Source: a virus
Direction: 5' to 3' (one strand)
Virus record (IMG/VR): IMGVR_UViG_3300010885_046411
Span: 1 to 64,000 of that record
DNA length: 64,000 nt
The notes below the pieces were generated by a model. That model saw only the letters and a list, made by a program, of their open reading frames with translations, did no database searches and was not told the DNA's origin. Positions 1,139 through 26,556 of this stretch are shown here, in pieces; position 1 is the stretch's first letter, and every line of letters begins with the position of its first letter. Position numbers and translations under genes: made by a program.

Positions 1139-1145
1139 TGTGCCC

Positions 1146-1153: not shown

Positions 1154-1246
1154 CAAAATTGTTTGTCAGATATCTACACTTTTTTTGCTTTAATTGTCGG
1201 TTGCTTCTATAAAGTTCATGGTGGTGGGGGTTAAGATTGTGAAGGA

Positions 1247-1735: not shown

Positions 1736-1744
1736 GTTAGTTGC

Positions 1745-2110
1745 CTAAAGGGTAATGATGTCCACAATCATTTCTGTCCATCGCTCTAAATCTTCGCGTG
1801 TCTTGATATGCTCAACCATATACTCTTGCAGGGTCATAAAGTTGCGTTGCAGTTGAGGGTTGCCAAAGGAGAACCTAGCTATATCGCCTTGGTTGCCCAT
1901 AGCCTCCCAGAAGTCGCTATTTGCCTCTCGTGGCATCTTGCGCTCTGCTAAGGTTATTAGGCTGTTGCAGGCGTTACGTGCTGGTGCTAACGCCATAGCA
2001 ACCTCTCTGTCTAACTTCTCGCCCTTTAGTGCATCTATATAGATAACTACCTGCCCAGCGTGCATGATAGCCATGTGCATCAAGTTTGTGCGCGTCTCTT
2101 GGTCTAACAT
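1745..2110 (-). CDS. Hypothetical protein (121 aa)
   Basis: All-alpha, acidic 121-residue protein whose ATG directly follows the stop of the ERF-like gene, so the two are probably translated together. No family recognised. Its position between an ssDNA-annealing protein and a nuclease suggests an accessory role in replication or recombination; this is inferred from context only. Confidence 0.65.
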   Translation of the reverse strand: MLDQETRTNLMHMAIMHAGQVVIYIDALKGEKLDREVAMALAPARNACNSLITLAERKMPREANSDFWEAMGNQGDIARFSFGNPQLQRNFMTLQEYMVEHIKTREDLERWTEMIVDIITL

Positions 2111-2845: not shown

Positions 2846-2870
2846 GTTGGGGGCTTGTTAATTGGTTCTG

Positions 2871-2878
2871 TAAAGGTA
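2871..2878 (-). promoter_or_regulatory. Promoter -7 box for the ERF operon
   Basis: The minus strand reads TACCTTTA, with a T-rich stretch about 16 bases upstream in the -33 position. A GCGTAA motif at 2908-2913 lies upstream of it, as at two other early promoters. Confidence 0.5.
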
Positions 2879-2920
2879 CGAAATGGGTCTTGAAAAACTG
2901 AAATCTTGCGTAAGGTTTTG

Positions 2921-3664: not shown

Positions 3665-3666
3665 GT

Positions 3667-4179
3667 CTAAAATGCGTTAAGAACTTTTTGAATATGATGC
3701 GCTTGGCACAAGGATTTTATTGCCTCTCCATCAACTTTTAAATAACGCACCTTGTCTTCGGGGAATTGATATTTACACCCGCCTGCCCCAATGTTTATCC
3801 AATAACGCCCTGTCCCTTGCTCTGCAAAGAACCCAACACTACCCTTCTCTTGCTTCCATTCTAGCGGCTTAATCGCCGCACGGATTTGGTCTAGGGTTGG
3901 CGTTTCTATGTTAATAAGATGTTGGGCAATAGGCTTACCTGCTGGTGTAAGATAGTCTTGAGACGATAATTTCAAGCCATGCTCTGCCAAAGCCTCGCGA
4001 ATTTCTCTTATCGTTTTTCGCCCTATATTTCTAAACCTCAACAAGTCGGCTTCTGAAAGATGTGCTACTTCGCTTGCCTTACCTTCCCATCCAAAAAAAC
4101 TTACAAGAGGGGTTCTAGCACGAGTGCTTAACCCTAAGTGTTTAATAAGCACAGTCTCAGGCTTAGATACATTCTCCAT
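3667..4179 (-). CDS. Small protein with RNA polymerase alpha-CTD-like domain
   Basis: 170 residues. Residues ~10-70 read like the bacterial RpoA C-terminal domain: LGLSTRARTPL near the start and LRFRNIGRKTIREIREAL further on, matching the alpha-CTD pattern of helix 1 plus helix-hairpin-helix. The positions equivalent to E. coli alpha R265, G296, K298 and E302 are occupied by R, G, K and E, so DNA-binding residues are kept. The remaining ~95 residues are an unrecognised domain. No alpha N-terminal dimerisation domain is present, so it cannot replace alpha. A role in steering host RNA polymerase or binding DNA is possible but unproven. Confidence 0.65.
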   Translation of the reverse strand: MENVSKPETVLIKHLGLSTRARTPLVSFFGWEGKASEVAHLSEADLLRFRNIGRKTIREIREALAEHGLKLSSQDYLTPAGKPIAQHLINIETPTLDQIRAAIKPLEWKQEKGSVGFFAEQGTGRYWINIGAGGCKYQFPEDKVRYLKVDGEAIKSLCQAHHIQKVLNAF

Positions 4180-4181
4180 GT

Positions 4182-4412
4182 CTATACAGGCAGTTTAAGT
4201 GAGTAAAAAGGCTCCAGTGTCAGCCCATTGCGCACCCCGCTAAGGGATAGCACTCTGTTTTCTTGGGCATAGGTAAGCACGACCACATCGTCCATCTCGG
4301 CACATAGCCGTGTCTGGAGGATTAGCAGGCTTTCTTTCGTGTAAGCCTTTGTGAGCTTAAACTTTTTTGCCAACCCAATTAGGTAGGCATCTAGGGGCGA
4401 TGATGCAATCAT
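4182..4412 (-). CDS. Hypothetical protein (76 aa)
   Basis: I chose the ATG at 4412 (MIASSPLDAYL...) because its ATGA overlaps the stop of the small membrane-protein gene upstream, a standard coupled arrangement, and the frame before it reads like an out-of-frame shadow. The 76-residue product has an alpha-helical N-terminal half and a beta-rich C-terminal half. No family recognised. Confidence 0.6.
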   Translation of the reverse strand: MIASSPLDAYLIGLAKKFKLTKAYTKESLLILQTRLCAEMDDVVVLTYAQENRVLSLSGVRNGLTLEPFYSLKLPV

Positions 4413-4516
4413 AGTGAGATAAAAACAAGTAAAGTGGCTACGGAACCTATCACGGCCCCTGCAAACAGGCAACCCATGATAAGGCGAAAAATCTCTAAGG
4501 GGGTGTAGGGGGTCAT
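4409..4516 (-). CDS. Tiny single-pass membrane protein (35 aa)
   Basis: ATG at 4516 to TGA at 4409. The product is MTPYTPLEIFRLIMG followed by a hydrophobic Gly/Ala/Leu/Val segment of about 20 residues, a single transmembrane helix with almost no tail. It fills the gap between two genes exactly, starting four bases after the upstream stop and overlapping the next start as ATGA. The tight packing is the main evidence that it is real. Function unknown. Confidence 0.55.
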   Translation of the reverse strand: MTPYTPLEIFRLIMGCLFAGAVIGSVATLLVFISL

Positions 4517-4519
4517 TGG

Positions 4520-4852
4520 TTAGAGAGTCGGTGGCGGGGTTGCGTAACGCCAATAGCGATTGCCAGAATAGAAGTGCGTAAAATCTGTAGGGTCTGTGAA
4601 CATCACAAAACACCTATTTGAAAAATCGTCTCCGTCTATGACTTCAACAAGACAAAACGAATCTGGCATTGTGCCGCCCTTGCTAATCTTCACCCAAGGA
4701 TTCTTTTCAGGTTCGGGGGCATAAAGGCGGTCTAAGGCTTCGTCAAGTGCCTGCCACTCCGAATCGCTATTCCACGCCCTAGATGCAACGTATTCCACAG
4801 ATACAATAAGCGACATCAATTCTTCCTTTGTCGGTCTCGGTTGCTTGTCCAT
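4520..4852 (-). CDS. Hypothetical acidic protein (110 aa)
   Basis: The start MDKQPRPTKEEL at 4852 lies one base after the stop of the 49-residue gene, so I prefer it to longer starts that would overlap that gene. The product has an N-terminal helical part (KEELMSLIVSVEYV) and a beta-rich C-terminal half. No known domain. It lies in the operon that leads to the recombination genes. Confidence 0.6.
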   Translation of the reverse strand: MDKQPRPTKEELMSLIVSVEYVASRAWNSDSEWQALDEALDRLYAPEPEKNPWVKISKGGTMPDSFCLVEVIDGDDFSNRCFVMFTDPTDFTHFYSGNRYWRYATPPPTL

Positions 4853-4853
4853 A

Positions 4854-5003
4854 TTAGTAAATGCGTTCGTCGGGGTTTTGGGATAGGTAGTCTTCCTCGG
4901 CCTGCTGCTGTTCAAGCCAGCAGCCCCACATATAGTCCTCATCCACATGGTCTGGGGCAGCAGGGGTATCGGAGGATTCAAAAGCTAATTCTTGTGCGCT
5001 CAT
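4854..5003 (-). CDS. Short acidic protein (49 aa)
   Basis: ATG at 5003, TAA at 4854. The sequence begins MSAQELAFESSDTPAAPDH and is strongly acidic, with a run of Gln and Glu in the middle. It is the first gene after a complete promoter (TACTTTTG at 5029-5036 and TTTG at 5053-5056), and the next gene starts one base after its stop. Function unknown; short acidic early proteins of phages often bind host proteins, but nothing here proves that. Confidence 0.55.
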   Translation of the reverse strand: MSAQELAFESSDTPAAPDHVDEDYMWGCWLEQQQAEEDYLSQNPDERIY

Positions 5004-5028
5004 GGTTTGATTGGCTAATTGTACACCA

Positions 5029-5056
5029 CAAAAGTACCTAGCCCATACAGCCCAAA
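5029..5056 (-). promoter_or_regulatory. Promoter for the leftward recombination operon
   Basis: On the minus strand, TTTG (5053-5056) and TACTTTTG (5029-5036) are separated by 16 bases, a full Bacteroidota -33/-7 promoter. The leader to the ATG at 5003 is about 22 bases. Confidence 0.65.
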
Positions 5057-5257
5057 TACTTGCTTTTTACAGAAAATCTTACATGGGCATCCCTTAGCCG
5101 CTTCTTTATCTTTGATGCCCCATTTGCCCATAACAGATACGACCTTAACCGTATATGCCTTACGCCGCCCACAAAAGCCATCACTTTAATACACCCACAG
5201 CCTTACATTATGCTTTTTTACTTTAGGCCATGCTTGTCTCAAGGCACCTCCCTATCC
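5037..5257. other. Divergent intergenic region upstream of the helicase
   Basis: About 220 bases between the leftward operon and the rightward helicase gene. It holds both promoters and an extra plus-strand TATCTTTG at 5107-5114, which could be a second start for the helicase transcript. No gene-like frame is convincing. Confidence 0.4.
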
Positions 5258-5265
5258 TACCTTTG
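5258..5265 (+). promoter_or_regulatory. Promoter -7 box for the primase-helicase gene
   Basis: TACCTTTG, with six bases to the ATG at 5272, so the transcript would be leaderless or nearly so. This spacing also decides the start codon. Confidence 0.6.
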
Positions 5266-5271
5266 ACATCT

Positions 5272-7275
5272 ATGGCCCTTTTTAATTCCTTTGAAGAGGC
5301 TGGCATTGATGCCACAAGTTTCAAAAAACAAGCACCTCACCATATCATTTGCCCTAAGTGCGGGGCCGACCGCAAGAAAGCCAAAGAGCCATCCCTACGT
5401 GTATGGCCCAAAGAGGGGCTATTTAAGTGCTATAACTGCGAATTTAGGGGCAAGATTAAAGACCCCAACTTTAATATAGTCTATCAGAAGCCCCACAAAA
5501 GCTATAAAAAGCCACACATACCCGAAACGCCGCCACCGCTTACCCCCGCCGCATCTACATGGTTAGCCTCTCGTGCTATATCAGAAGATACCGCCTATGC
5601 GTATGGCCTATACTCTACTGAAAGGTACTTTCCTTACCCCAAAGAATACGTTGCCTCTGATGGCACTACAAAAACCCGCGATAAGGGGCTATCCTCATGT
5701 ATAGCCTTCCCATACATGACCCCCGACTATGAGTGTCTATTTATTCAGTATCGGGATGCCATCAAGCGGTTTGTGGTTGAGGCCGATTGCCAACTAATAC
5801 CTTTTGGGATGCACATAGCCGCCCACTATGGCGGCTTAAAGGATAAGAACGACCGCCCGAACTCTGCCCTTATATGGACAGAGGGGCAACTAGATTGTAT
5901 GAGCCTCTATGAGGCTGGCTGTGGCAACGTAGTCTCTGTGCCGAATGGTTCGCAGCAGTCCCCTCAACTAGAATGGCTAGACGATGTACAGGACTTTGTA
6001 GGGCTATTTACAACGCATATCCTATGCCTTGACGATGATAGTGCAGGGCTGCCCCTAAAGAAGGAACTGATGCGCCGCCTCGGTGCCTCACGCTGCAAGG
6101 TTGTTCACTACCCCAAAGATGCTAAGGGGCAACACCAACTAGCCAAAGATGGCAGGCCCATGAAAGATGCCAATGCCGTACTCACTACGCTAGGGGCACA
6201 AGGGCTGAAAGACTTGATTGAAAAGGCCGACTTTGAGCCTATGGTTTCCTTTTACTCTAAGGAGTACCTGCTAGAGAAAATGATGCAGGTAGGCGATAGG
6301 GGTATAGATGGCGGGGCTACATTGGGCTGGCCTGAATTTGATGAGTATCTACGGTTTTCTTTTGAAAGGGTTACGGCCATTTCTGGCACCCCCAACGCTG
6401 GCAAGTCAGATTTTGTAGACCAAATTGCTATAATCTTAAACCGTAAGCATGGCTGGAAGGGTAGTTTTCATAGCCCTGAGAAAGACTACATCTTGCAACT
6501 AGGCACCCTTGCCGCCAAGCTAAATTCTAAGCCTTATTTCAACTTTGCGCATGTGCCAGGGGATAGACACTCGGTAGCCTATACGAAAGAAGAACAAGTG
6601 AAGGCGATAGATTACCTGACTGATAACTTTTATTTTTTCAATCCTACATCGGCGCAGCTAACCTACCAGCAAGTGATAGAGGACTGGCGCAGTTTGGTAC
6701 AGCGATATGGCATACGCTTTGCAGTGCTAGACCCGTACAACTACTTGCGCATGGATGAAAAAGACGAGGCTATGTTCATTAAGAAGATGCTGATTGCTTT
6801 CAAGGATGCGGCAAGGGAGTTGCAGATACACGTATTTATTGTGGCCCACCCCACTAAGGCAGGTAAGATAGACCCGAAGGGGGGCTTATATAGCATTGCT
6901 GGCTCGGCCCACTGGGCGAACTCGGTAGATAACTTTATATGGCTGTATAGGCACATAGGGGAAGGCAGAGGGCAGGGGTATGGGGATAATACAGAGGTGT
7001 TTGTCCACAAGCTACGGAATCAGCAATTTGAGGGTAGGCTTACGGGGGAAGATGGCATAATGCTGTCGTACAAAATGAATACTGGTGAGTTTGATGTAGC
7101 CAGCAACCGCCCTGCGATTGCGGCCCCGCCGCCGCCCAAGACTATGTACACCCCCAAGAATACCTATGGTAGGAATACGGGCGTAGTGTATGACCAAGAG
7201 CAAACCATAAAAGCATTTTATGCGGAGGTGCCACAGTTGGCGGCATCTTTAGATGCGGAGGGGTTGCCGTTTTAG
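5272..7275 (+). CDS. T7 gp4-like primase-helicase
   Basis: 667 residues. The start MALFNSFEEAG is set by the promoter box six bases upstream; an upstream in-frame ATG at 5230 would include the promoter in the gene. Domains in order: zinc ribbon with C27xxC30 and C53xxC56; TOPRIM core with E204 (TEGQLD) and the D254-D256 cluster (LDDDSAG); RecA-like DnaB-family helicase with Walker A GTPNAGKS at 372-379 and a later LDPYNYL strand. This is the layout of phage T7 gp4 and Twinkle, which prime and unwind DNA at the fork. It is the only plus-strand gene within the early block. The C-terminal ~60 residues are Pro-rich and probably flexible. Confidence 0.9.
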   Translation: MALFNSFEEAGIDATSFKKQAPHHIICPKCGADRKKAKEPSLRVWPKEGLFKCYNCEFRGKIKDPNFNIVYQKPHKSYKKPHIPETPPPLTPAASTWLASRAISEDTAYAYGLYSTERYFPYPKEYVASDGTTKTRDKGLSSCIAFPYMTPDYECLFIQYRDAIKRFVVEADCQLIPFGMHIAAHYGGLKDKNDRPNSALIWTEGQLDCMSLYEAGCGNVVSVPNGSQQSPQLEWLDDVQDFVGLFTTHILCLDDDSAGLPLKKELMRRLGASRCKVVHYPKDAKGQHQLAKDGRPMKDANAVLTTLGAQGLKDLIEKADFEPMVSFYSKEYLLEKMMQVGDRGIDGGATLGWPEFDEYLRFSFERVTAISGTPNAGKSDFVDQIAIILNRKHGWKGSFHSPEKDYILQLGTLAAKLNSKPYFNFAHVPGDRHSVAYTKEEQVKAIDYLTDNFYFFNPTSAQLTYQQVIEDWRSLVQRYGIRFAVLDPYNYLRMDEKDEAMFIKKMLIAFKDAARELQIHVFIVAHPTKAGKIDPKGGLYSIAGSAHWANSVDNFIWLYRHIGEGRGQGYGDNTEVFVHKLRNQQFEGRLTGEDGIMLSYKMNTGEFDVASNRPAIAAPPPPKTMYTPKNTYGRNTGVVYDQEQTIKAFYAEVPQLAASLDAEGLPF

Positions 7276-7287
7276 AGGGTACAAAAA

Positions 7288-7311
7288 GAGGGCTAGAAGC
7301 CCTCATTTTTG
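7288..7311. terminator. Bidirectional intrinsic terminator between convergent genes
   Basis: GAGGGCT, loop AGA, AGCCCTC, then ATTTTTG on the plus strand; an A-rich run on the other side gives a U-tract for the minus strand too. It sits between the helicase stop and the end of the leftward early operon. Confidence 0.8.
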
Positions 7312-7347
7312 TAAAAATAATTAACACCTTTTAACGCAAAATTCACA

Positions 7348-7632
7348 CTATTTCTTTAAAGCCTCTAGGGCTTGGAATACTTGGTCTTTGGTTGCGCTGC
7401 CCTGAAAGAGCGTGTCGGTCAGGGCTACACAGCCTTGTTCTTTGAGCCACTTGCGTAACTTCATAAGACGTTGCAAGGATAGGGCCATGATGGAAGGGTA
7501 GGATAGGCCAGACTTGGCACAACGGCGTATAGATGAAGGGGTGGGGTTGCTCACCCTTATCATATATTCGGTGCTGTCTGCCTTCGGCTTGTAATGCTCA
7601 ATGCACTTAACTAGCGGGTCTTTGGGTGTCAT
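7348..7632 (-). CDS. Hypothetical basic protein (94 aa)
   Basis: 94 residues, Lys/Arg-rich and mostly helical, with the look of a small nucleic-acid-binding protein (SSIRRCAKSGLSYPSIMAL could form an HTH). No family recognised. It is the last gene of the leftward operon before the terminator at 7288. Confidence 0.6.
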   Translation of the reverse strand: MTPKDPLVKCIEHYKPKADSTEYMIRVSNPTPSSIRRCAKSGLSYPSIMALSLQRLMKLRKWLKEQGCVALTDTLFQGSATKDQVFQALEALKK

Positions 7633-7647
7633 GTTACGTGGTGGGGG

Positions 7648-7902
7648 TTAAAAGGGCTGAATTAAAAGGGTATTGGTACGCTTGTCAAAGAAGCCAACTT
7701 GGCTGTTGTAAAATGTCAGCAACTCCCGTGCAATCACGGTTAAGTGGCTGATAGGTAATTTGCCCGTCTCGTTTAGAGGTACGGGTATAGTGCCCTTTGG
7801 CAACGTCTGTGTGTAGCTTTGGCACTCGGTATGTGTGATGCGTAAAAGCATGGTTAGGCGGGTGGGGTTAAAGCGAACGGTTGTAATTTCGGTAATGCTC
7901 AT
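7648..7902 (-). CDS. Hypothetical protein (84 aa)
   Basis: The start MSITEITTVRF at 7902 is preferred, although an in-frame ATG 15 bases earlier is possible. Either way it overlaps the end of the small membrane-protein gene in another frame. The product is beta-rich and I recognise no domain. Confidence 0.55.
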   Translation of the reverse strand: MSITEITTVRFNPTRLTMLLRITHTECQSYTQTLPKGTIPVPLNETGKLPISHLTVIARELLTFYNSQVGFFDKRTNTLLIQPF

Positions 7903-7993
7903 TTTGTTTGGCTGCATTGTAGGCTCTTAGCATAATAGCCAATAGCAGTGGTGAAAAGACTAGGGCCGTTGCCCAAAAGAGAAAGGTGTACAT
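7868..7993 (-). CDS. Tiny membrane protein (41 aa)
   Basis: ATG at 7993, TAA at 7868. A hydrophobic helix of about 22 residues starts almost at once (MYTFLFWATALVF) and is followed by a short polar tail rich in Asn, Tyr and Arg. It begins three bases after the upstream stop and overlaps the next gene by 35 bases. Function unknown. Confidence 0.5.
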   Translation of the reverse strand: MYTFLFWATALVFSPLLLAIMLRAYNAAKQNEHYRNYNRSL

Positions 7994-7996
7994 AGG

Positions 7997-8533
7997 CTAT
8001 GGGTGGGTGGCTTTAAAATGCTCCCAATCTTCGGCCTCACGCTCGGCCTTGTCTTTGGCATCTGAGTTTGCGGATTCAAGAAAGGCAAGCACATCCGTTT
8101 CCATGTCTGCCCAGCTTATATCCTTGCCCATTGCCGCCGTTAGTTGGGTGGCTATGGCATCGGCAATATAGTCTCCCAAATCGCCAGCCTCGTTAAGGGC
8201 TTCAAATTCGGGGGCTGCGCCGCCGCAAAGGTCTTCCAAAAGTTCTTCAGCCCCGTCATAAAAAGCAAGCACAAGGCTCTCGTATTCAATGTGCCTGTGG
8301 GTTGGCACGTCTAGTATGCTCTCAATCACAGATGAACTATGACCGCCGCCAGCAAGCGAATAAGTATCTACGGCCTCTATGCGAGCATAGTCGTTAAAGG
8401 CAGTTGTGTACCATTGGCCTTCCTTGCCTTTGATAATGAGTTTAAATTTGATGCCGTTTGTTGTGCGAACGGTTTGGCCTGAGCGCAGTTGCTCTTGGGT
8501 GGGGTAAATGGTTGGGGGTATTTGCGCGTTCAT
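7997..8533 (-). CDS. Hypothetical acidic protein (178 aa)
   Basis: 178 residues, strongly acidic in the C-terminal 80 residues. Near residue 45 it contains YTTAFN, encoded by a 16-base stretch (8392-8407) also found in the neighbouring gene at 8740-8755 in the same reading frame. No known domain. It sits in the middle of the early leftward operon. Confidence 0.65.
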   Translation of the reverse strand: MNAQIPPTIYPTQEQLRSGQTVRTTNGIKFKLIIKGKEGQWYTTAFNDYARIEAVDTYSLAGGGHSSSVIESILDVPTHRHIEYESLVLAFYDGAEELLEDLCGGAAPEFEALNEAGDLGDYIADAIATQLTAAMGKDISWADMETDVLAFLESANSDAKDKAEREAEDWEHFKATHP

Positions 8534-8557
8534 GGGGTGGGGTGTTAAGTGGATGAA

Positions 8558-8938
8558 TTAAGAAAGAATGGCTACGGCCTGCATAAGCGGTGCGCCAGAC
8601 CATTTGCCTAGCCTCACTGCCTTCCCTAGTGGGGCTAATGCTTCACTGGCTACGGCCTCGGTTACAATTCTACGCTCTACTAGAGAGCGCACAAACCGTA
8701 ATTCTAGGTGTCTAGCGGCTGCGCTGTTAAACGCATTGCCGTTAAAGGCAGTTGTATATACCTTACACTTGGCTGCGGCCTGTATGGCCTTTGCTAGGGT
8801 AGAGGTGCTAGGGTCTTGTTCGCATCGTTCGGATGCCTTGCGCCATTCTTGCATGGCGGGTTCGTATGCACATGCCTGCACGGCCTCTGTGTAGAGCGTG
8901 TCTAGGATTGCTTCGGCTTGGTCTGCTTGGATGGTCAT
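8558..8938 (-). CDS. Hypothetical Ala-rich helical protein (126 aa)
   Basis: 126 residues, mostly alpha-helical and Ala-rich. It shares the YTTAFN motif and its exact 16-base coding sequence with the next gene of the operon, the only resemblance between them. No family recognised. Confidence 0.65.
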   Translation of the reverse strand: MTIQADQAEAILDTLYTEAVQACAYEPAMQEWRKASERCEQDPSTSTLAKAIQAAAKCKVYTTAFNGNAFNSAAARHLELRFVRSLVERRIVTEAVASEALAPLGKAVRLGKWSGAPLMQAVAILS

Positions 8939-8941
8939 AGC

Positions 8942-9145
8942 TTAGTCTTCTGAAATATCGTCTGGGTGCGTTACGTTGTAACCTTCTTGCTCTAAGAAAT
9001 CAACGGCAAGAGAGCGCATATCGAAGTATGCCTGCCTTTCTGGGGGCGATAATTCATTTGGGCTTTTATCCCCCAAACTATCTACACAGTCTCGGAAGTC
9101 TGCAAGGGTGTTTTGCCAACGGCAATAAGACATATTGTGTGCCAT
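8942..9145 (-). CDS. Small conserved phage protein, MSYCRW type (67 aa)
   Basis: Residues 5-20 read MSYCRWQNTLADFRDC, the opening of a small protein that recurs in phages of many hosts, normally annotated as hypothetical. Translation may start at that internal Met (9133) rather than at 9145. The C-terminal half is helical and acidic. The family's function is not known to me. Confidence 0.7.
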   Translation of the reverse strand: MAHNMSYCRWQNTLADFRDCVDSLGDKSPNELSPPERQAYFDMRSLAVDFLEQEGYNVTHPDDISED

Positions 9146-9146
9146 A

Positions 9147-9284
9147 TTATCTGTGGGTTGCGCCCCGATACACGGGGCAAGTGGGTGAATAAAGGGGTTG
9201 AAAGGCGGTGCAGCTTGCTAGGGCAACGGCGGCGGCTAGGATGGCCGCGTACATGGTGAGGCGGTATATTGTGCGCGGTTGCAT
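9147..9284 (-). CDS. Tiny lipoprotein (45 aa)
   Basis: ATG at 9284, TAA at 9147. A short basic N-region (MQPRTIYR) is followed by the hydrophobic MYAAILAAAVALASC, whose LASC is a canonical lipobox with Cys25 as the modified residue. The mature peptide would have only 21 residues. It starts two bases after the upstream stop and ends one base before the next ATG, so it is very likely real. Small phage lipoproteins serve in lysis (Rz1-like) or superinfection exclusion; early-operon placement favours exclusion, by inference only. Confidence 0.6.
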   Translation of the reverse strand: MQPRTIYRLTMYAAILAAAVALASCTAFQPLYSPTCPVYRGATHR

Positions 9285-9286
9285 TG

Positions 9287-9499
9287 CTAGTTGCGCTTTT
9301 GTTGAATGTTGCTCATGCTTGAAATACTTGGGTTGTATCGGTGATACTTACCAATAGGACTTTGAACTAATGCCCGACCAAAACAAACATCTAGCAATGT
9401 GCCATAATAGTTTGTAAGTTGGCCCGATACGGTTTGGTGCCATTCAATCTCTTTGCCGATAAGGCTTTCTAAAAGCTCAATTTTGTCTAGCGTACTCAT
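9287..9499 (-). CDS. Hypothetical protein (70 aa)
   Basis: 70 residues with a helical start (LDKIELLESLIG) and a beta-barrel-like middle (GTLLDVCFGRALVQSP), a pattern seen in small SH3-like phage proteins. No firm family. The start overlaps the end of the upstream gene by four bases (ATGA). Confidence 0.6.
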   Translation of the reverse strand: MSTLDKIELLESLIGKEIEWHQTVSGQLTNYYGTLLDVCFGRALVQSPIGKYHRYNPSISSMSNIQQKRN

Positions 9500-9687
9500 C
9501 TGGTTTGGAGTTTGAAATTGGGTGCAGGGTTAAGGTGCATAAGTTTTGTGGTGCTGCCCTCTGGCTCTATCCAAACCTCCAGCGATAGGTCTCTGGCTAT
9601 CTTGTATGCCTCGGCGGTTGCTTGCTTGAAGTCTCCGTAGGGCTTAGACTTGAAGCCTTGATTTGTGGGTATTACAATCGAGTACAT
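9496..9687 (-). CDS. Hypothetical protein (63 aa)
   Basis: The start MYSIVIPTNQG at 9687 lies five bases after the upstream stop; a longer start at 9717 would overlap that gene and adds an implausible N-terminus. The product looks like one small alpha/beta domain (Y..FKQATAEAYKIARDL). No family recognised. Confidence 0.55.
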   Translation of the reverse strand: MYSIVIPTNQGFKSKPYGDFKQATAEAYKIARDLSLEVWIEPEGSTTKLMHLNPAPNFKLQTR

Positions 9688-9692
9688 AATAT

Positions 9693-10112
9693 TTAGGCGA
9701 ATACGCCCATTTTGCAAAGGGTTAGAATACGGGCAAGGCCAGTGTCGGTAATGTCGTCAGTCGCTACGTCTCTGTGTGAGCCATCCTCCCAAAACCCTGC
9801 CCACACTTTATTCATTTCAGGGTGGTATTTGACATTGCAACACGAAACAGCCCTTCCATCTTTTAGGGTGATTAGAAAGTCGTCTAGCCCCATCTGCTTC
9901 ATGCTAAACAGGTCGGGGTAAGCAAGGGCATACGATTGCTCCAACCCCAATGCAGCCCCAACACTAAGGAATTTAATAGGGCCGCGCTGGTTTGGGCTTT
10001 TGTATAGCATAGACCTTAGCTCTAAGTAGTCCCTACCCCGTTGGTGTAGCGTTTCTAGCCATGTGCTAGTTAGGTGCGCGTATTCTGGTGATAGTTGCTG
10101 TTTGTTTTCCAT
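9693..10112 (-). CDS. Hypothetical protein (139 aa)
   Basis: 139 residues, soluble, helical at the N-terminus and beta-rich after residue 85, with a CC pair near residue 92. No known domain recognised. It lies one base from the upstream gene in the early operon. Confidence 0.65.
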   Translation of the reverse strand: MENKQQLSPEYAHLTSTWLETLHQRGRDYLELRSMLYKSPNQRGPIKFLSVGAALGLEQSYALAYPDLFSMKQMGLDDFLITLKDGRAVSCCNVKYHPEMNKVWAGFWEDGSHRDVATDDITDTGLARILTLCKMGVFA

Positions 10113-10113
10113 G

Positions 10114-10683
10114 TTAAAAAATGAATGTGTCGGTGGGTGGGTATGAGCCGTTACTTTCTGCCAAGCCCCAAGTGCATAGGTAGTCCCAAAGGGCTACATT
10201 TTTGCAGTCGTCGGGCAAGTCGTCAAAAGATATTTTTTTACCTTGCTTGGGGTATTGAGATGTGCTTATCTCCCCGTGTTGGCAAAAACCATGTGGAGCA
10301 AATGGTGTCGCCGACATAGCCACATACTCTGTGGTGTTACGTTCACGGCCTGCATAGCGGCCTGTGAACCATACAGTATAGAGGTCTATGGTTTGGCCGC
10401 CGTTATCTCGTATATCCATGTATCTTGGCTCACGGGTGCCCTCTTTTAGCAAAGACCTTACAGCCTTTTCAAAGGTCTTGCGCTGGTATCGGTGCCAAAT
10501 GGTTCCGTATGAAACATATACATGGGCCTTGGTATAGGCAATGCTGCCATACGTGCCAAATAGTGTATTTGCCCACCACTTAGAGCCTTCTGGCAAGGGG
10601 CCTGCCCATATTACTGCTTGCCCGTATGCGCTCACGCGCATAGCCAAGGGCGGGTATTTCTCTAAGTCTTTTAGTGTTTCCAT
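10114..10683 (-). CDS. Hypothetical protein (189 aa)
   Basis: 189 residues, unusually rich in Trp and Tyr, with no signal peptide or membrane helix. No family recognised. It is preceded by a hairpin with a U-tract (10709-10732), so its expression may depend on read-through from the promoter at 11056. Confidence 0.65.
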   Translation of the reverse strand: METLKDLEKYPPLAMRVSAYGQAVIWAGPLPEGSKWWANTLFGTYGSIAYTKAHVYVSYGTIWHRYQRKTFEKAVRSLLKEGTREPRYMDIRDNGGQTIDLYTVWFTGRYAGRERNTTEYVAMSATPFAPHGFCQHGEISTSQYPKQGKKISFDDLPDDCKNVALWDYLCTWGLAESNGSYPPTDTFIF

Positions 10684-10708
10684 GCGTTAAGGGGTGGTGT
10701 TAAAAGGT

Positions 10709-10732
10709 AAAAAGCGGTTGCCTGTACACCGC
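10709..10732 (-). terminator. Possible internal terminator or attenuator
   Basis: On the minus strand GCGGT, a nine-base loop and ACCGC are followed directly by TTTTT. The stem is short, so termination may be partial. It lies between the first two genes of the operon. Confidence 0.4.
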
Positions 10733-10742
10733 AAGGTAGGGG

Positions 10743-11033
10743 TTATTTTTTAGGGAAAGCAACTTGGGAAAAAAGTTTATCAATATCTTCTTGACACATA
10801 TAGCGGTTGCCATCTTCTTCCATCAAGGTAGCATAGGTTAGCCTGCCCCAAGTAGAGCAGTTGGCATAAGCAATTTTTTTGCCTAGCTTTTTCATAACCG
10901 CCGCTTTGATGTTTGGCGTAGACATGGCACGACAAACTTCTTTGCCGTTTTTGTCATAAAAGAAAACAGTTGCGCCCCAGATAGAACCAAGTGAGGCTAA
11001 TTTGTTAGAAGATGAGCTGCGAAGCGTTTTCAT
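10743..11033 (-). CDS. Hypothetical basic protein (96 aa)
   Basis: 96 residues, basic, first gene behind its own promoter. The middle (VFFYDKNGKEVCRAM) looks like a beta-hairpin and the region after it is helical. No family recognised. A possible attenuator follows the gene. Confidence 0.65.
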   Translation of the reverse strand: MKTLRSSSSNKLASLGSIWGATVFFYDKNGKEVCRAMSTPNIKAAVMKKLGKKIAYANCSTWGRLTYATLMEEDGNRYMCQEDIDKLFSQVAFPKK

Positions 11034-11055
11034 GTTGTTGTCCCGTTTGGTAGTA

Positions 11056-11063
11056 CAAAGGTA
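11056..11063 (-). promoter_or_regulatory. Promoter -7 box for the 11.0-7.3 kb operon
   Basis: The minus strand reads TACCTTTG; the leader to the ATG at 11033 is about 22 bases. Confidence 0.65.
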
Positions 11064-11094
11064 TAGGGCCGTATGGCGGCGTTGATTGAAATAT

Positions 11095-11110
11095 GCGTAA
11101 TTACTTACGC
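11095..11110. repeat. Inverted repeat GCGTAA-TTAC-TTACGC upstream of promoter
   Basis: A perfect 6-base inverted repeat with a 4-base spacer lies about 35 bases upstream of the -7 box at 11056. The same hexamer lies upstream of the promoters at 2871 and 14661, so it may be an operator or activator site. Confidence 0.4.
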
Positions 11111-11130
11111 GGATATTACATGGTGGGTTA

Positions 11131-11367
11131 TTAAAAAGCTAGTAATACGGCTGTCTGCACGGCTGGGTACTGGTGGCCTCGGTAATCGGCTGCCCATGCC
11201 TGCAACTCCTCTAGGCTGTCAAATACTTGGTAACTATGTAGGTCTCTTAGGTCTGCATCTGTTTGCGCTATCCTAGACTGATAGGCAAAGGGTGCGGACT
11301 TGTGGGGTATCTCGCATACCCATTGGCCGCGTTTAACGGCTAGGTCGGTGGTATTGTCTGTGTTCAT
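11131..11367 (-). CDS. Hypothetical protein (78 aa)
   Basis: 78 residues with alternating beta and helical parts; SYQVFDSLEELQAWAAD is a likely helix. No family recognised. It is the last gene of the 14.6-11.1 kb leftward unit. Confidence 0.6.
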   Translation of the reverse strand: MNTDNTTDLAVKRGQWVCEIPHKSAPFAYQSRIAQTDADLRDLHSYQVFDSLEELQAWAADYRGHQYPAVQTAVLLAF

Positions 11368-11379
11368 GGTTACGGGGTG

Positions 11380-11601
11380 TTAGGTGGTTCGCTTTGCGTG
11401 TCTGAAAAGCATAGAGGAAATTTTGCCCACAATCCCCCCTCTGGTTGATAGGTCTGAGAAAATTTGCGTTGCTATGGGCTTGCCTACGCCACTTACTAAG
11501 TCTTTGTAAACGGTGTAGGGCTTATCGGTGTTATCCGATATAATGTTTGCCATCTGGTCTAATAGGGCCGCTTTTCTATCGGCTTGCGTATGTGTTTGCA
11601 T
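11380..11601 (-). CDS. Hypothetical helical protein (73 aa)
   Basis: 73 residues, mostly helical and basic at the C-terminus (MLFRHAKRTT). The middle (VYKDLVSGVGKPIATQIFSD) resembles a winged-helix or HTH segment, though too weakly to call. Co-oriented with its neighbours. Confidence 0.6.
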   Translation of the reverse strand: MQTHTQADRKAALLDQMANIISDNTDKPYTVYKDLVSGVGKPIATQIFSDLSTRGGIVGKISSMLFRHAKRTT

Positions 11602-11615
11602 GGTGGTAGGGTGGG

Positions 11616-11918
11616 TTAAACGTGGGCTAGTTGGTTGGCTACGGTTGCGGCACGTAGGGCTGCCTGCTTACCTGTCTGTAAGCCACTCCAGCCATTAACA
11701 GGCGGGTTGTAAAGGGCATGTATATGCCCATTCCCTTGCAACCCCCATGCGTTAAGGCTCTGCCCCTCGGCTAGTAATTTGGCTGCATGGGTGCGAAAGG
11801 CGGCAATATCTGCATAGCCGTACTGTGCTAAATTACCGTTATGGTTGCGCATGAATTTTTGGTAAAAATTTGCATCTTCATGCAAGCCGTTTACGGTTTG
11901 GTTGTGGCAAGTTGTCAT
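11616..11918 (-). CDS. Hypothetical protein behind structured RNA element (100 aa)
   Basis: I place the start at the ATG at 11918 (MTTCHNQTVNG). A GTG at 11960 is also in frame, but the stretch between them is the 3' part of an RNA element duplicated in front of another gene, so it is more likely untranslated. The product is rich in His, Asn and Ala, has no known domain, and its start lies about 19 bases after the last hairpin of the element. Confidence 0.55.
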   Translation of the reverse strand: MTTCHNQTVNGLHEDANFYQKFMRNHNGNLAQYGYADIAAFRTHAAKLLAEGQSLNAWGLQGNGHIHALYNPPVNGWSGLQTGKQAALRAATVANQLAHV

Positions 11919-11936
11919 TTTTAAAGGTGTTAAAAT

Positions 11937-12001
11937 AGAGCGGTATTGCTCTGAGCGCACATCTAGCAGCGAACTAGGTAAGCCCTACGGCTTGTGTGCG
12001 C
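11937..12001 (-). ncRNA. Structured intercistronic RNA element, copy 1
   Basis: Read on the minus strand: GCGCACA (12001-11995) pairs with UGUGCGC (11961-11955), enclosing hairpin AAGCC/GGCUU and a second hairpin CUAGU-UCGCU-GCUAG. A further hairpin AGAGC/GCUCU follows. Copy 2 at 13572-13636 has the same length and fold, with compensatory changes in the second hairpin. Each copy ends about 20 bases before an ATG. Confidence 0.7.
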
Positions 12002-12011
12002 TTGGGTTAGT

Positions 12012-12197
12012 CTATTTGTAGTATTGCCTATCTGAGCCATCTGGCATAATTAGTAGAACTTTATAACCTTTATTGGCTAATTGTTTAGCCCTATCTTTTG
12101 CGTCCTTTTCATTTGTGAAGCTATGTTCATAGCTATCTGAAAATACACTTTTTGTGAATTTCACAGTGAATTTCACAGTGAATTTTTGAGTGTTCAT
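12012..12197 (-). CDS. Small basic protein with tandem N-terminal repeat (61 aa)
   Basis: 61 residues. The N-terminus repeats FTVK (KFTVKFTVKFTK) because of a 12-base tandem repeat at about 12158-12182. A helical, Lys-rich segment and a short beta strand follow. No family recognised. The 12-base repeat is a likely site of length change by slippage. Confidence 0.6.
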   Translation of the reverse strand: MNTQKFTVKFTVKFTKSVFSDSYEHSFTNEKDAKDRAKQLANKGYKVLLIMPDGSDRQYYK

Positions 12198-12221
12198 GCT
12201 TGGTAGGGGTTGGGCTGGGGT

Positions 12222-12839
12222 TTAGATTTGTTCGCCGTTCTCTGTAAATTCGTACTCGTTGGCTTCTAAAGACTCAGATACGGCCTCGTCGCTTGTAAGG
12301 TCTTCGTATGCGGCTTTTAGGTCTTTATACAGTTGCTTGCAAAGGGTGCGATATTCTTGGGTTGCCTCATCTGCTATCTTATCGCAAATGGCATACAAAT
12401 ACGCTTCTAGGTTTGGCCAGTGCCCGTATGGCATGCCGTCTTTCAGGTCTTCAAAAACATCTCCAGCGTCTATATAGCGCGTTCTTTCGTGGCAGTATTG
12501 ATTAAACCATAGGTTTTTGGCTATGCCTACCTTGTTTCTTGCGTATGCTTCGCATATCTTAGCAAAGCGGGTGCCTTTATAGTTGTCTTCAACCCATTTT
12601 TTTAGGTCAAAAGTGCCCTCAAAGCACGCCCCGTCCCCTTGCGAATTGAAGCCAGAAAAAAGAATATCTGAGGGCTCAAAATAGCCGTATTCTTTGAGCG
12701 TTTCTCTGAACCCTTCATATACTGAGTCCCACCATTCGCCGTATTCTACGTTAAAATAGCGGTGCTGCTCAATAGCTTTTTGTTTTGCCTCTTCTGAAAG
12801 CTCGGCAAACATATAGGCGGTTGTTTCAATAGTTCTCAT
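12222..12839 (-). CDS. Conserved phage protein of unknown function (205 aa)
   Basis: 205 residues, acidic and aromatic-rich. It carries LSEEAKQKAIEQHR near residue 14, EWWDSVYEGFRE near 35 and FSGFNSQGDGACFEG near 61. The last motif is the hallmark of a protein family found in many unrelated phages. I know of no established function for the family. The start lies one base after the stop of a tiny membrane-protein gene. Confidence 0.7.
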   Translation of the reverse strand: MRTIETTAYMFAELSEEAKQKAIEQHRYFNVEYGEWWDSVYEGFRETLKEYGYFEPSDILFSGFNSQGDGACFEGTFDLKKWVEDNYKGTRFAKICEAYARNKVGIAKNLWFNQYCHERTRYIDAGDVFEDLKDGMPYGHWPNLEAYLYAICDKIADEATQEYRTLCKQLYKDLKAAYEDLTSDEAVSESLEANEYEFTENGEQI

Positions 12840-12840
12840 C

Positions 12841-12948
12841 TTATCGGGTTGCCACTTGCGCGGCGGGTTTGGTGGTGAAAAGGTGGCGGTTTGAATGTAT
12901 AGCCCACACTAGGCAGGCTATTAGTAAAAGGGTGGATAGGGTGCGCAT
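12841..12948 (-). CDS. Tiny membrane or secreted peptide (35 aa)
   Basis: ATG at 12948, TAA at 12841. MRTLSTLLLIACLVWAIHS is a hydrophobic N-terminal helix and the remaining ~16 residues are polar. It lies four bases after the upstream stop and one base before the next ATG, so it is probably translated. It could be membrane-anchored or a cleaved peptide. Function unknown. Confidence 0.5.
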   Translation of the reverse strand: MRTLSTLLLIACLVWAIHSNRHLFTTKPAAQVATR

Positions 12949-12952
12949 GGGT

Positions 12953-13267
12953 TTAGGCGAGTATTAAGGCCGTTTCCTCTTTGCTTATACGCGCTGCATG
13001 GTATAGGGCTGTGCCTATGTCGGTGTAGGCTTGGAACTCACCTTCGGTATCAATAGCCCCGCTATGCAGAGACCTGCGCAGGCTGTATTTGCGTGTATGG
13101 CCTTCGCCAAATGTGCATTTTTCAGAAGACACAAACAGCGTTGAGCCTTCTGAGCCTGCAAATGTTTTTTCACTGAAACGCGAGGCAAAAAAGCGCAGCG
13201 CACCTTTGTCAAAAAAGTGGTGCCCGATTAGCTTGTTAGCCCATTTAATCTCTTGTAATGTTCTCAT
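12953..13267 (-). CDS. Hypothetical protein (104 aa)
   Basis: 104 residues, basic and Ser/Phe-rich in the first half. No domain recognised. The region just upstream (13271-13291) forms a hairpin, GCCCGT-loop-ACGGGC, in the transcript, with the start codon a few bases downstream; this may affect translation. Confidence 0.6.
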   Translation of the reverse strand: MRTLQEIKWANKLIGHHFFDKGALRFFASRFSEKTFAGSEGSTLFVSSEKCTFGEGHTRKYSLRRSLHSGAIDTEGEFQAYTDIGTALYHAARISKEETALILA

Positions 13268-13331
13268 AACATAGGCCCGTATTTTCGCACGGGCGGGCGG
13301 GTAAGGGTAAGGGGTGAAAAGGTGTAAAGTG

Positions 13332-13553
13332 TTAGGCGGTTAGACGGTTGTTTATTAACCTGTGGCAAGCTCTGGCCATATCCCATGGCGTTTGGTAGTC
13401 TGGGTTAGGGTGAATGTATCCGACATCTTGTAACCTTAGAAACAGGTTGCGCGATTGAGATAGCATTTTGATTGCACTTGCGTTATTCTTGCTGCGGGTG
13501 TAAGAGCCTGCAAAAAGACTAACCGCCTTACTGTACATTCGGTCGTTATTCAT
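13332..13553 (-). CDS. Hypothetical protein behind structured RNA element (73 aa)
   Basis: I place the start at the ATG at 13553 (MNNDRMYSKAV). An in-frame GTG at 13595 would add residues encoded by the duplicated RNA element and is less likely. The product is helical and basic with no recognised domain, and it does not resemble the other gene (11616-11918) that follows a copy of the element. Confidence 0.55.
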   Translation of the reverse strand: MNNDRMYSKAVSLFAGSYTRSKNNASAIKMLSQSRNLFLRLQDVGYIHPNPDYQTPWDMARACHRLINNRLTA

Positions 13554-13571
13554 TGGTAAAAGTGTTAAAAT

Positions 13572-13636
13572 AGAGCGGCATTGCTCTGAGCGCACATACG
13601 GTAACGAACCGTGTAAGCCCTATGGCTTGTGTGCGC
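13572..13636 (-). ncRNA. Structured intercistronic RNA element, copy 2
   Basis: Same 65-base architecture as copy 1: outer stem GCGCACA/UGUGCGC, hairpin AAGCC/GGCUU, hairpin ACGGU-UCGUU-ACCGU, then AGAGC/GCUCU. In the third helix three of five pairs differ from copy 1 by changes on both strands, and U-G becomes U-A. The other differences lie in loops. Confidence 0.7.
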
Positions 13637-13647
13637 TGGGTGGGCTG

Positions 13648-14169
13648 TTAGTAGTTTACATAGTTTTGTATGGTTTCATAGGCCCATTCGGGGTACATGG
13701 TATGCCAGTCAGCACCTTGTAAATAGTCTAAATAGCTATACTTGATTATGCCTGAACGTATAATTTGCAGCCGTTCGCGCCTATCCATTTGCGCCCATGC
13801 TTCGTGCATCTCTTCAATTTCACGTTCAAAATAGTCATCTTCATCCAAACTTGGATAGTCTTCTATTTCTGACAAGATGGCTTCACATTCTGCCAACTTT
13901 GGGCTATCTTCACGTATTAGGATAGCATCTACATGCCCGCACGCCCAATGGCCAAAACAGGCTGTAAATTCTGTATCTGTTTCCGTCGTAGTTATACCTA
14001 AACGGTCTAAAATTGTTTCGTAGTTACTGTTTAGCAGTATGCCGCTATCACCGGTTCTGCTATACATTACAAAGCAATTATCATATTGCTCTCCCATGTA
14101 GCTATCGGGATGTTTCCATCTCTTAGCTTCAAGCAAGGGGTATTGTGTAGGTGTTTCAATCGTTGTCAT
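13648..14169 (-). CDS. Hypothetical acidic protein (173 aa)
   Basis: 173 residues, acidic, with many Tyr, Glu and Asp. It has a Cys/His group (CFGHWACGH) near residue 71 that might bind metal, and a very acidic helix at 100-125. No family recognised. Confidence 0.65.
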   Translation of the reverse strand: MTTIETPTQYPLLEAKRWKHPDSYMGEQYDNCFVMYSRTGDSGILLNSNYETILDRLGITTTETDTEFTACFGHWACGHVDAILIREDSPKLAECEAILSEIEDYPSLDEDDYFEREIEEMHEAWAQMDRRERLQIIRSGIIKYSYLDYLQGADWHTMYPEWAYETIQNYVNY

Positions 14170-14194
14170 GTTCGTGTTGGTGTTGGGTTGAGGG

Positions 14195-14401
14195 TTAGAC
14201 GGTTACGGGTTCGTTCCAAATACATTTGGCATCTTCTGCAAGTACATAGGCGCGGAACTTAGAACGGGCCTCTCTTAGACCACAATAGGCGTATGCCTGT
14301 TTGTACTCTACACATTTGTAGGTAGTGCGACAAATGATACAAGATAAGCCACCAAAAGTCCTTACCTTTTCTGTGCTTATGTCAAACTGTGCTTTTGTCA
14401 T
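14195..14401 (-). CDS. Small Cys-rich protein (68 aa)
   Basis: The start MTKAQFDIST at 14401 is preferred over longer starts that run into the upstream gene. It contains CIICRTTYKC followed by YCGL, which gives four or five cysteines and could form a small zinc site, although the spacing is not a standard zinc finger. No family recognised. Confidence 0.55.
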   Translation of the reverse strand: MTKAQFDISTEKVRTFGGLSCIICRTTYKCVEYKQAYAYCGLREARSKFRAYVLAEDAKCIWNEPVTV

Positions 14402-14720: not shown

Positions 14721-15204
14721 CTTACATAGGTTAATTTATTTATAGATACAACGAAACTCTATTACATACACCCAAACCGTTGTATATCATGCCTACCTAA
14801 ACATGTACAGAATAACGTACATACATTCTACTAACAAACTGCCACCACAGCCCAACACATACCACTGCCAAATAGGCACTATGCCATAAATCAAACTGAA
14901 CGGCCCCAACTCTTACAAGGCACCCAGACCGCATAGGTAGCCCTTAGATGCGGATATATGTATGGGGTAAGTATCTCCATAGGCTAGCCGATACGGGTAA
15001 CATATACGATAGTAGGAGATAGTTAGCAGATAGACTAGTTATGGGAGTCCTACTCTTTCGCCTCTCTCTCCCCCTTTCCCTCACCCCTCTCTATCCTATT
15101 TAACATAACGAAGCCCGTTTCCTTGAAACGTACGTACCATAGCCCTACCTAAATCCGTACAGCCAAACGTAGGAGCCTTCATTATGTTAAGTACACCCAT
15201 AGAA

Positions 15205-15284
15205 TGTATCTATTTAGATACAACCATCGTCGGACTGTATCTATTTGGATACATGCACCCCGACTCTTGGATACATGCACCCCG
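15205..15284. repeat. TGTATC-N6-GATACA inverted repeats and direct repeats
   Basis: TGTATC TATTTA GATACA (15205-15222) recurs as TGTATC TATTTG GATACA at 15236-15253, exactly 31 bases later, about three helical turns. The second copy overlaps a direct repeat TTGGATACATGCACCCCG found at 15245-15262 and 15267-15284. Likely protein-binding sites. Confidence 0.6.
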
Positions 15285-15687
15285 CCCCTTTGCTCTTAAG
15301 GGCAAGGGATACGCGGTAAGCGTAAGCCCTGCACCCGTTGCCCCGCCTATTACACCCCGACCCCACCCCCTCACACCCTTTCCGTCGGGGGATTGCTCGG
15401 CAGGCGGGGGTGTATATATGTTACTCCGCCCATTCTGACTATGCGCTACGGTAAACCCTCCTGCCACTCTGAGTTTGCTGCTACGAATAACATTCTGTCT
15501 GCACGTATGCTTTACGCTGCTATATGTACTGCTTTCGTTTCATATTGACGGGTATTTGCTACGGCTCCGTATTTGTTAGCCTCGGTGGGAAACAAGCTGC
15601 ATTCTGTAGGAATGTACGCGTACTTTGTAGCAGGGTGGTTAAGCCGTGTAGGTTTTAGACCGCTTCGGTTGTTATACGGCTACGCGC

Positions 15688-15706
15688 TTGTAGCGCTTGC
15701 CTACAA
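15688..15706. repeat. Inverted repeat TTGTAG-N7-CTACAA
   Basis: Perfect six-base arms around CGCTTGC within the non-coding region. It could be a hairpin or a dimeric protein site. Confidence 0.4.
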
Positions 15707-16009
15707 CCTAGCTTAGTAGTGTTTTTTTTGTGATTAGCGCGCGGTGGTAGCGCCCTGCGCGTACACAAGCGTGCGTGCTGGTAGTTTGTATGTTTTGGCG
15801 CGTATTGTAGCGTAGCGTACAATTAAGCGCCGTATTCGGTGTGTCTGTGGTAATATACCGCTGCTAGGTTATAGGTATCGGCGGGTTTGGCTCCGCGCTG
15901 TTGGCGCTTGCCTCACCGCCTATTGTATATAGGGAAAGGTATGCGCTATTGGGGAGCGTATGCGGGTAGAGAGAGGATATGGCTAGGATATAGTTATATT
16001 CCCCCCCTG

Positions 16010-16063
16010 TTAAAATACTTAAATATTTTAATCTATGCTAATCATACTGTATGGTTTAGTATG
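16010..16063. repeat. AT-rich palindrome and CATACT/AGTATG inverted repeat
   Basis: A 22-base near-perfect palindrome (TTAAAATACTT then AAATATTTTAA, 16010-16031) is followed by CATACT-N9-AGTATG (16043-16063). Such AT-rich dyads are common at unwinding elements. Confidence 0.45.
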
Positions 16064-16098
16064 ACCGTGCATGGGTAGTAATGTGGGGGAACCGAAGT

Positions 16099-16212
16099 AT
16101 GAAGGTAAAGGATTTGAACCTTGTTTCATTACTGTATAACACTGGGCGCATTGACCTGAACCAAGCCACGTGTTATGTAGGCAAGTGTAGTAGTATCTGG
16201 GATGCACTATAA
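16099..16212 (+). CDS. Possible small protein (37 aa)
   Basis: An ATG frame of 37 codons (MKVKDLNLVSLLYNTGRIDL then a Cys-containing tail) with protein-like composition and gene-like codons. The same DNA, read on the other strand, lies just downstream of a promoter box at 16247-16254 and contains hairpins, so it may instead specify RNA. No promoter box or ribosome signal is evident for the plus-strand frame. Confidence 0.3.
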   Translation: MKVKDLNLVSLLYNTGRIDLNQATCYVGKCSSIWDAL

Positions 16213-16246
16213 GATGGCATACGGAGTATTCCGTCCACTACTGCAA

Positions 16247-16254
16247 CAAAGATA
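16247..16254 (-). promoter_or_regulatory. Minus-strand promoter box reading into the non-coding region
   Basis: The minus strand reads TATCTTTG. The predicted transcript begins about 16245 and at once contains the hairpin ACGGA-AUAC-UCCGU (about 16222-16235). No minus-strand gene follows. Confidence 0.4.
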
Positions 16255-16333
16255 ATACATACCTAAGGTTATTTCCAAATCTGCGTACATCTTTTTTTTT
16301 CCAAATTAGTTGTTGCGATAATAAAAAGTGTTG

Positions 16334-16341
16334 TACCTTTG
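16334..16341 (+). promoter_or_regulatory. Promoter -7 box for the rightward early operon
   Basis: TACCTTTG with a TTG about 18 bases upstream; the leader to the ATG at 16379 is about 35 bases. Confidence 0.65.
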
Positions 16342-16378
16342 TCAAGTGCTACAAGGCTCTCCCTTCGAATCATAAATT

Positions 16379-26552: not shown

Positions 26553-26556
26553 CTGA

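What the first reader, a model, noticed from the sequence alone, without database searches (positions are those of the whole stretch)
11937..13636. Duplicated intercistronic RNA element with compensatory base changes
Two 65-base elements, 11937-12001 and 13572-13636 on the minus strand, share one fold: outer stem GCGCACA/UGUGCGC, hairpin AAGCC/GGCUU, a third hairpin, then AGAGC/GCUCU, each about 20 bases before an ATG. In the third hairpin the copies read CUAGU-UCGCU-GCUAG and ACGGU-UCGUU-ACCGU. Three of five pairs change on both sides, U-G becomes U-A, and other differences fall in loops. This is direct evidence that the RNA fold is selected. The 7-bp closing stem and T-loop-like UUCG hairpin recall a shortened tRNA. 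It could be a processing site, translational switch or decoy. The two downstream proteins are unrelated, so the element itself is mobile or reused.
Basis: seen in the sequence. Interest (0 to 1): 0.82.

Follow-up and report, generated by a model that had tools for sequence, protein, structure and literature searches.

The report
Duplicated structured leader in phage operon
An unclassified phage, probably of a Bacteroidota host, carries the same small folded RNA twice between genes of one operon, changed in a way that keeps its shape; it looks like a real but so far private control or processing element in the phage's messenger RNA.

Summary
Two 66-nt minus-strand elements (11937-12002, 13572-13637) share one predicted fold: an 8-bp closing stem (P1) around two hairpins (P2, P3), then hairpin P4. 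All 23 pairs form in both copies; three P3 pairs change on both sides, one changes on one side, and the other three differences lie in loops. Each structure lies 9-10 nt after the upstream stop codon and exactly 18 nt before the next ATG. The similarity runs to that ATG and ends there; the open frame through it shows no coding constraint. There are exactly two copies in the 72,231-base virus record. I found no relative in Rfam, the scanned virus, phage and plasmid collections, distant kin phages, or about 1,590 Bacteroidota genome searches. The tRNA/T-loop reading is not supported, and mobility has no positive evidence. All changed pairs are in P3, so P1, P2 and P4 look fixed in sequence as well as shape. 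The best explanation is a cis-acting intercistronic mRNA element, most likely a processing/stability boundary between operon segments; a protein-bound translational operator and a co-transcriptional (put-like) signal are the main rivals. The element is well supported; its mechanism is inferred.

The parts
13572..13637 (-). Element copy 2 (first in transcription): P1-P2-P3 three-way junction plus P4
   Evidence: Fold -27.6 kcal/mol, z -4.10; CM 104.2 bits
11937..12002 (-). Element copy 1: same fold
   Evidence: Fold -27.7 kcal/mol, z -3.65; CM 102.5 bits
13598..13612 (-). P3 of copy 2 (ACGGU-UCGUU-ACCGU), the variable helix
   Evidence: Three double and one single compensatory change against copy 1
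11963..11977 (-). P3 of copy 1 (CUAGU-UCGCU-GCUAG), the variable helix
   Evidence: As above; 8 of the 10 differences lie in these 15 nt
13554..13571 (-). 18-nt leader between P4 and the ATG, copy 2
   Evidence: 15 of 18 identical to copy 1; mostly unpaired
11919..11936 (-). 18-nt leader between P4 and the ATG, copy 1
   Evidence: Same length as copy 2; weak 6-bp pairing possible
13332..13553 (-). Downstream ORF of copy 2, 73 aa, no family
11616..11918 (-). Downstream ORF of copy 1, 100 aa, no family, unrelated to the 73-aa ORF
13648..14169 (-). ORF upstream of copy 2, 173 aa; stop codon 10 nt before P1
   Evidence: PHROG 4313
12012..12197 (-). ORF upstream of copy 1, 61 aa; stop codon 9 nt before P1

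Best explanation
Each copy is a cis-acting structured element in a polycistronic phage mRNA, placed in the gap between one cistron's stop codon and the next cistron's translation initiation region. Shown by sequence: the fold, its duplication, pair-preserving change in P3, conserved spacing on both sides. Inferred: it acts as an operon boundary. The compact junction blocks exonucleases from either side and/or marks a cleavage site, so the operon's segments can be processed and decay separately while the downstream start region stays open. The sequence-fixed P1, P2 and P4 would be the surfaces read by a nuclease or RNA-binding protein; P3 needs only to be a helix. I put about 0.85 on 'RNA-level element with a selected fold' and about 0.4 on this mechanism.
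For: Stable fold in both copies, retained in context. Pair-preserving changes. On the minus strand the one changed P3 pair is U-G in copy 1; on the plus strand it would be A-C, so the mRNA strand is favoured. No coding constraint, and similarity ends at the ATG: 36 of 150 identical after it. Of ten gaps tested in this gene array these two are by far the most structured (z -4.0 and -4.7, next -2.1). Spacers are 9/10 nt to the upstream stop and 18/18 nt to the ATG. The structure sits just outside the -20 to +20 region that is typically unstructured at Flavobacterium johnsoniae starts (PMC6847099), so it need not occlude initiation. Changes are concentrated in P3 (8 of 15 positions against 2 of 51, Fisher p 4e-5). 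Candidate TAnnTTTG boxes at 14668 and 11063 bracket a set of genes split by the two elements.
Against: No transcript ends, processing data or third sequence exist. The P1+P2 duplex (13 bp if stacked) is short for a classical RNase III substrate (background knowledge). The conserved leader may mean the element serves translation instead. P1, P2 and P4 show no covariation, so their pairing rests on energy alone. Operon limits are predicted, not measured.
Confidence: 0.4

Rival explanations
1. Translational operator: a phage or host RNA-binding protein recognises P1/P2/P4 and controls initiation at the two downstream ORFs, co-regulating two unrelated small early proteins.
For: The repeat continues through the leader to the ATG with identical 18-nt spacing; P1, P2 and P4 are sequence-fixed while P3 only keeps its shape, as expected for protein recognition.
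Against: The fold ends 18 nt before the ATG and leaves the start region largely open, especially in copy 2; no alternative fold sequestering the start appears (MFE and centroid agree). TTAAC-type leaders occur before other genes of this phage, so part of the leader match may be generic.
Confidence: 0.25
2. Co-transcriptional signal like HK022 put: the nascent RNA binds RNA polymerase and changes pausing or termination downstream.
For: put also occurs as two related copies of about 70 nt in one phage, each a multi-stem RNA acting on early transcription (PMC9378689).
Against: put sites lie downstream of the two early promoters in two operons; these lie mid-array on one strand, after earlier genes. 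The fold differs (two stem-loops against three-way junction plus hairpin). P4 plus AUUUUA is not scored as a terminator, and no terminator near either copy was tested.
Confidence: 0.13
3. A mobile or recombining DNA element (MITE-like, cassette boundary) that inserted twice.
For: Direct repeats flank a four-ORF segment (12012-13553) and lie next to unrelated genes.
Against: Only two copies; no target-site duplication seen; the 3' boundary coincides with the ATG in both copies; nothing similar in scanned collections; a DNA hairpin would not favour the U-G pair of copy 1 over G-C or A-T.
Confidence: 0.1
4. A trans-acting small RNA or decoy cut out of the operon transcript.
For: Compact 66-nt fold ending in a hairpin followed by AUUUUA.
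Against: No tRNA or Rfam similarity; the conserved link to the ATG is not explained; no promoter box inside the element.
Confidence: 0.08
5. Ordinary recent duplication of an intergenic stretch with P3 changed by chance, no selected RNA role.
For: Only two sequences; the within-pair shuffle is reached in 65 of 500.
Against: Retention of every pair has probability 0.029 at the same positions and 0.0003 at random positions; both copies fold far better than shuffles.
Confidence: 0.04

Closest known systems
HK022 putL/putR antiterminator RNAs (PMC9378689)
   Same: Two related copies of about 70 nt of structured RNA in one phage genome, encoded on the transcribed strand of early genes
   Different: put is two stem-loops near the early promoters of two operons and binds RNA polymerase; here a three-way junction plus hairpin lies twice inside one gene array, and the likely host is of a different phylum
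RNase III sites between phage T7 early genes (background knowledge, not retrieved here)
   Same: Structured elements repeated between cistrons of one early transcript
   Different: T7 sites are long hairpins with an internal loop; this fold has no duplex longer than 8 bp (13 bp if P1 and P2 stack), and cleavage is untested
Three-way-junction riboswitch plus expression-platform hairpin (general architecture, background knowledge)
   Same: A junction followed by a hairpin just before a start codon
   Different: Junction linkers are only 1-2 nt, no Rfam riboswitch matches at the elements, no alternative fold is predicted
tRNA-like structures
   Same: Short closing stem carrying hairpins
   Different: No tRNA score, no T-loop adenine, two arms only, linkers differ

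Membership tests
tRNA or tRNA-like element | Recognised by tRNA models | tested here: not met
   ARAGORN 0 genes in the window; no Rfam tRNA match up to E = 10
tRNA or tRNA-like element | T-loop with U54-A58 pair (UUCRANY) | tested here: not met
   Loops read UUCGCUG and UUCGUUA: C or U at the position of A58
Any Rfam 15 family | Gathering score reached | tested here: not met
   0 matches in the window; permissive search of the region gives none at either element
Intrinsic terminator | G+C-rich hairpin followed by a U tract | tested here: not met
   P4 is 5 bp followed by AUUUUAAC; not listed by the scan
Bacteroidota sigma-A promoter | TAnnTTTG box in or just downstream of the element | tested here: not met
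   No minus-strand box in either gap; consensus from PMC9723704
HK022 put | Two stem-loops near each early promoter | tested here: not met
   Different fold and position
HK022 put | RNA binds RNA polymerase and suppresses termination | not testable with these tools
   Needs transcription assays
Phage intercistronic processing site | Structured RNA between cistrons of one transcript | tested here: met
   Both gaps; that it is a single transcript is inferred from gene order and strand
Phage intercistronic processing site | RNA ends produced by cleavage at the element | not testable with these tools
   Needs RNA-seq of infected cells
Translational operator | Structure or bound protein overlaps the initiation region | tested here: inconclusive
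   Fold ends 18 nt before the ATG; -18 to -1 unpaired 0.52 and 0.86; binding cannot be tested
Mobile element (MITE-like) | Multiple copies at unrelated sites or genomes, with terminal signatures | tested here: not met
   Two copies in the record, none elsewhere

The most novel reading that the evidence does not exclude
A previously undescribed class of phage intercistronic RNA, with three sequence-fixed helices and one shape-only helix, is recognised by a dedicated phage or host protein to coordinate unrelated genes of one early operon in a Bacteroidota phage.
Probability: 0.25. Interest if true: 0.65.

Novelty: new variant of a known kind. Interest (0 to 1): 0.42.

Why it matters
Structured cis-acting RNAs between genes are well known in enterobacterial phages but, as far as I know, little described for phages of Bacteroidota, whose hosts naturally lack Shine-Dalgarno sequences (PMC6847099). 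Two natural copies that keep one fold while one helix has changed almost completely make a ready mutational comparison, and the exact spacing between neighbouring cistrons points to a role in a translated polycistronic mRNA. With no relative found and no known host, it is a candidate motif, not an established class.

Tried and rejected
Third copies: pattern, covariance-model and structure-only scans of the window and full record found none; the structure-only scan gave some other chance-like junctions.

CM searches of kin phage loci and records were empty. One Bacteroidota match (L220, 27.9 bits) was rejected: several pairs are broken and it lies in overlapping reading frames.

Close kin of the phage: primase patterns found none; the best terminase match in the virus collection is 28%. 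The two downstream proteins have no relatives by close-match search or tblastn.

Kin phages also carry internal repeats, but none of the pairs tested showed compensatory changes.

Coding reading: a GTG-to-ATG frame is open in both copies, with 7 of 8 changed codons nonsynonymous. Considered by eye and dropped: a boxA-like reading of CGCUCUAUUUUAACA, because GCUCU is paired in P4 and the spacing does not fit; integron attC, because the end sequences do not match.

Full report
What is there. On the minus strand, 13572-13637 and 11937-12002 hold two copies of one 66-nt sequence. Each folds as an 8-bp stem P1 (AGCGCACA/UGUGCGCU) closing two 5-bp hairpins, P2 (AAGCC/GGCUU) and P3, followed after one base by hairpin P4 (AGAGC/GCUCU). 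MFE and centroid agree; energies are -27.6 and -27.7 kcal/mol, z -4.10 and -3.65, and the fold persists in 151-nt context.

Is the fold selected? The copies differ at ten of 66 positions. Seven fall in the arms of P3 and three in loops. Three P3 pairs change on both sides and one changes from U-G to U-A; all 23 pairs are kept. Random bases at the same ten positions keep all pairs in 2.9% of trials, random positions in 0.03%. Sliding the partners destroys the signal, but the within-pair shuffle is reached in 65 of 500, so with two sequences the covariation is supportive, not conclusive. The U-G pair exists only on the minus strand, which favours the mRNA sense.

All four changed pairs lie in P3, a helix holding 5 of the 23 pairs (chance 0.0006). 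P3 has 8 differences in 15 positions, the rest of the structure 2 in 51 (Fisher p 4e-5). P1, P2 and P4 therefore look constrained in sequence as well as shape, as a recognition surface would be, while P3 looks like a structural prop. A block replacement of P3 would look the same.

Position. Each P1 begins 9 or 10 nt after the stop codon of the upstream ORF, and each P4 ends exactly 18 nt before the next ATG. The similarity continues to the ATG and stops there: 36 of 150 identical beyond it. The downstream proteins (73 and 100 aa) are unrelated and have no known family or relatives. The open frame through the 3' part of the element has 7 nonsynonymous and 1 synonymous codon changes, so it is not conserved as protein. 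In Flavobacterium johnsoniae the region -20 to +20 around starts tends to be unpaired (PMC6847099); the element ends at its edge. My reading is that it fits between the ribosome ending one cistron and the ribosome starting the next; this is inference.

Context. The window is part of a 72,231-base virus record. Its terminase is 25% identical to Caudoviricetes MW202828 and 23% to Flavobacterium elemo phages; its virus-collection kin reach 28%. With TAnnTTTG boxes, the sigma-A -7 consensus described in flavobacteria (PMC9723704), a Bacteroidota host is likely but not shown. The two gaps are the most structured of ten tested in this gene array: z -3.97 and -4.69, next -2.06. Candidate promoter boxes at 14668 and 11063 would place both elements in one transcription unit (inferred).

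Relatives. Exactly two copies exist in the record. No Rfam family matches. Virus-collection patterns, phage and plasmid blastn, kin phage loci and records, and four sets of 391-401 Bacteroidota genomes (partly overlapping) gave no credible relative. Genome searches used strict filters and a two-sequence model, so distant relatives could be missed; the large metagenome collection could not be scanned.

Mechanism. The best account is a cis-acting intercistronic element that bounds mRNA segments by processing or exonuclease blocking. A protein-bound translational operator is next; a put-like effect on RNA polymerase, a mobile element and an excised small RNA are less likely. None of the mechanistic steps is shown. 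HK022 put is the nearest documented parallel for 'two related structured RNAs in one phage' (PMC9378689), but fold and placement differ, so membership is not claimed. The tRNA/T-loop comparison fails its tests.

Verdict. Real, unusual within its genome, probably a new motif, but private so far and with unknown mechanism. Interest 0.42.

Noticed in passing
window 12157-12185: The start of the 61-aa ORF contains TTCACTGTGAAATTCACTGTGAAATTCAC, tandem overlapping palindromes (TTCACTGTGAA) that resemble a protein operator.
   Followed up: no
window 16328-16369 and 26529-26570: A 42-nt inverted pair, 81% alike, overlapping promoter-like sequence (TTGACA...TATTAT and TACCTTTG): possibly a duplicated divergent promoter region.
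   Followed up: partly
window 500-14400, minus strand: TTAAC occurs in the 35 nt before 10 of 27 ORF starts, against about 0.05 expected per leader. Part of this is upstream TAA stop codons, but it may be a leader motif.
   Followed up: partly
window 13275-13294, minus strand: A 7-bp hairpin GCCCGTGCGAAAATACGGGC lies 7 nt before the ATG at 13267, in the gap after the 73-aa ORF.
   Followed up: partly
window 13048-13126, minus strand: Weak Rfam match to the c-di-GMP-I-UAU riboswitch (27.7 bits, gathering 65.9, E 0.0028) inside the DUF7447 ORF; probably chance.
   Followed up: partly
window 14800-16300: About 1.5 kb with little convincing coding sequence and repeated palindromes such as TATCTAAATAGATAC; a possible origin or regulatory region.
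   Followed up: no
window 12841-12948, minus strand: A 34-aa ORF with a hydrophobic N-terminus (MRTLSTLLLIACLVWAIHS...) fills most of the gap between the 104-aa and 205-aa ORFs.
   Followed up: no
window 31530-43199, plus strand: A single 3889-aa ORF among the structural genes; a very large ORF in similar position exists in MW202828.
   Followed up: no
window 12222-12839, minus strand: The 205-aa ORF between the two elements belongs to PHROG 5162 and has relatives at 30-36% identity in large phages of Cronobacter, Pectobacterium, Caulobacter and Escherichia.
   Followed up: partly
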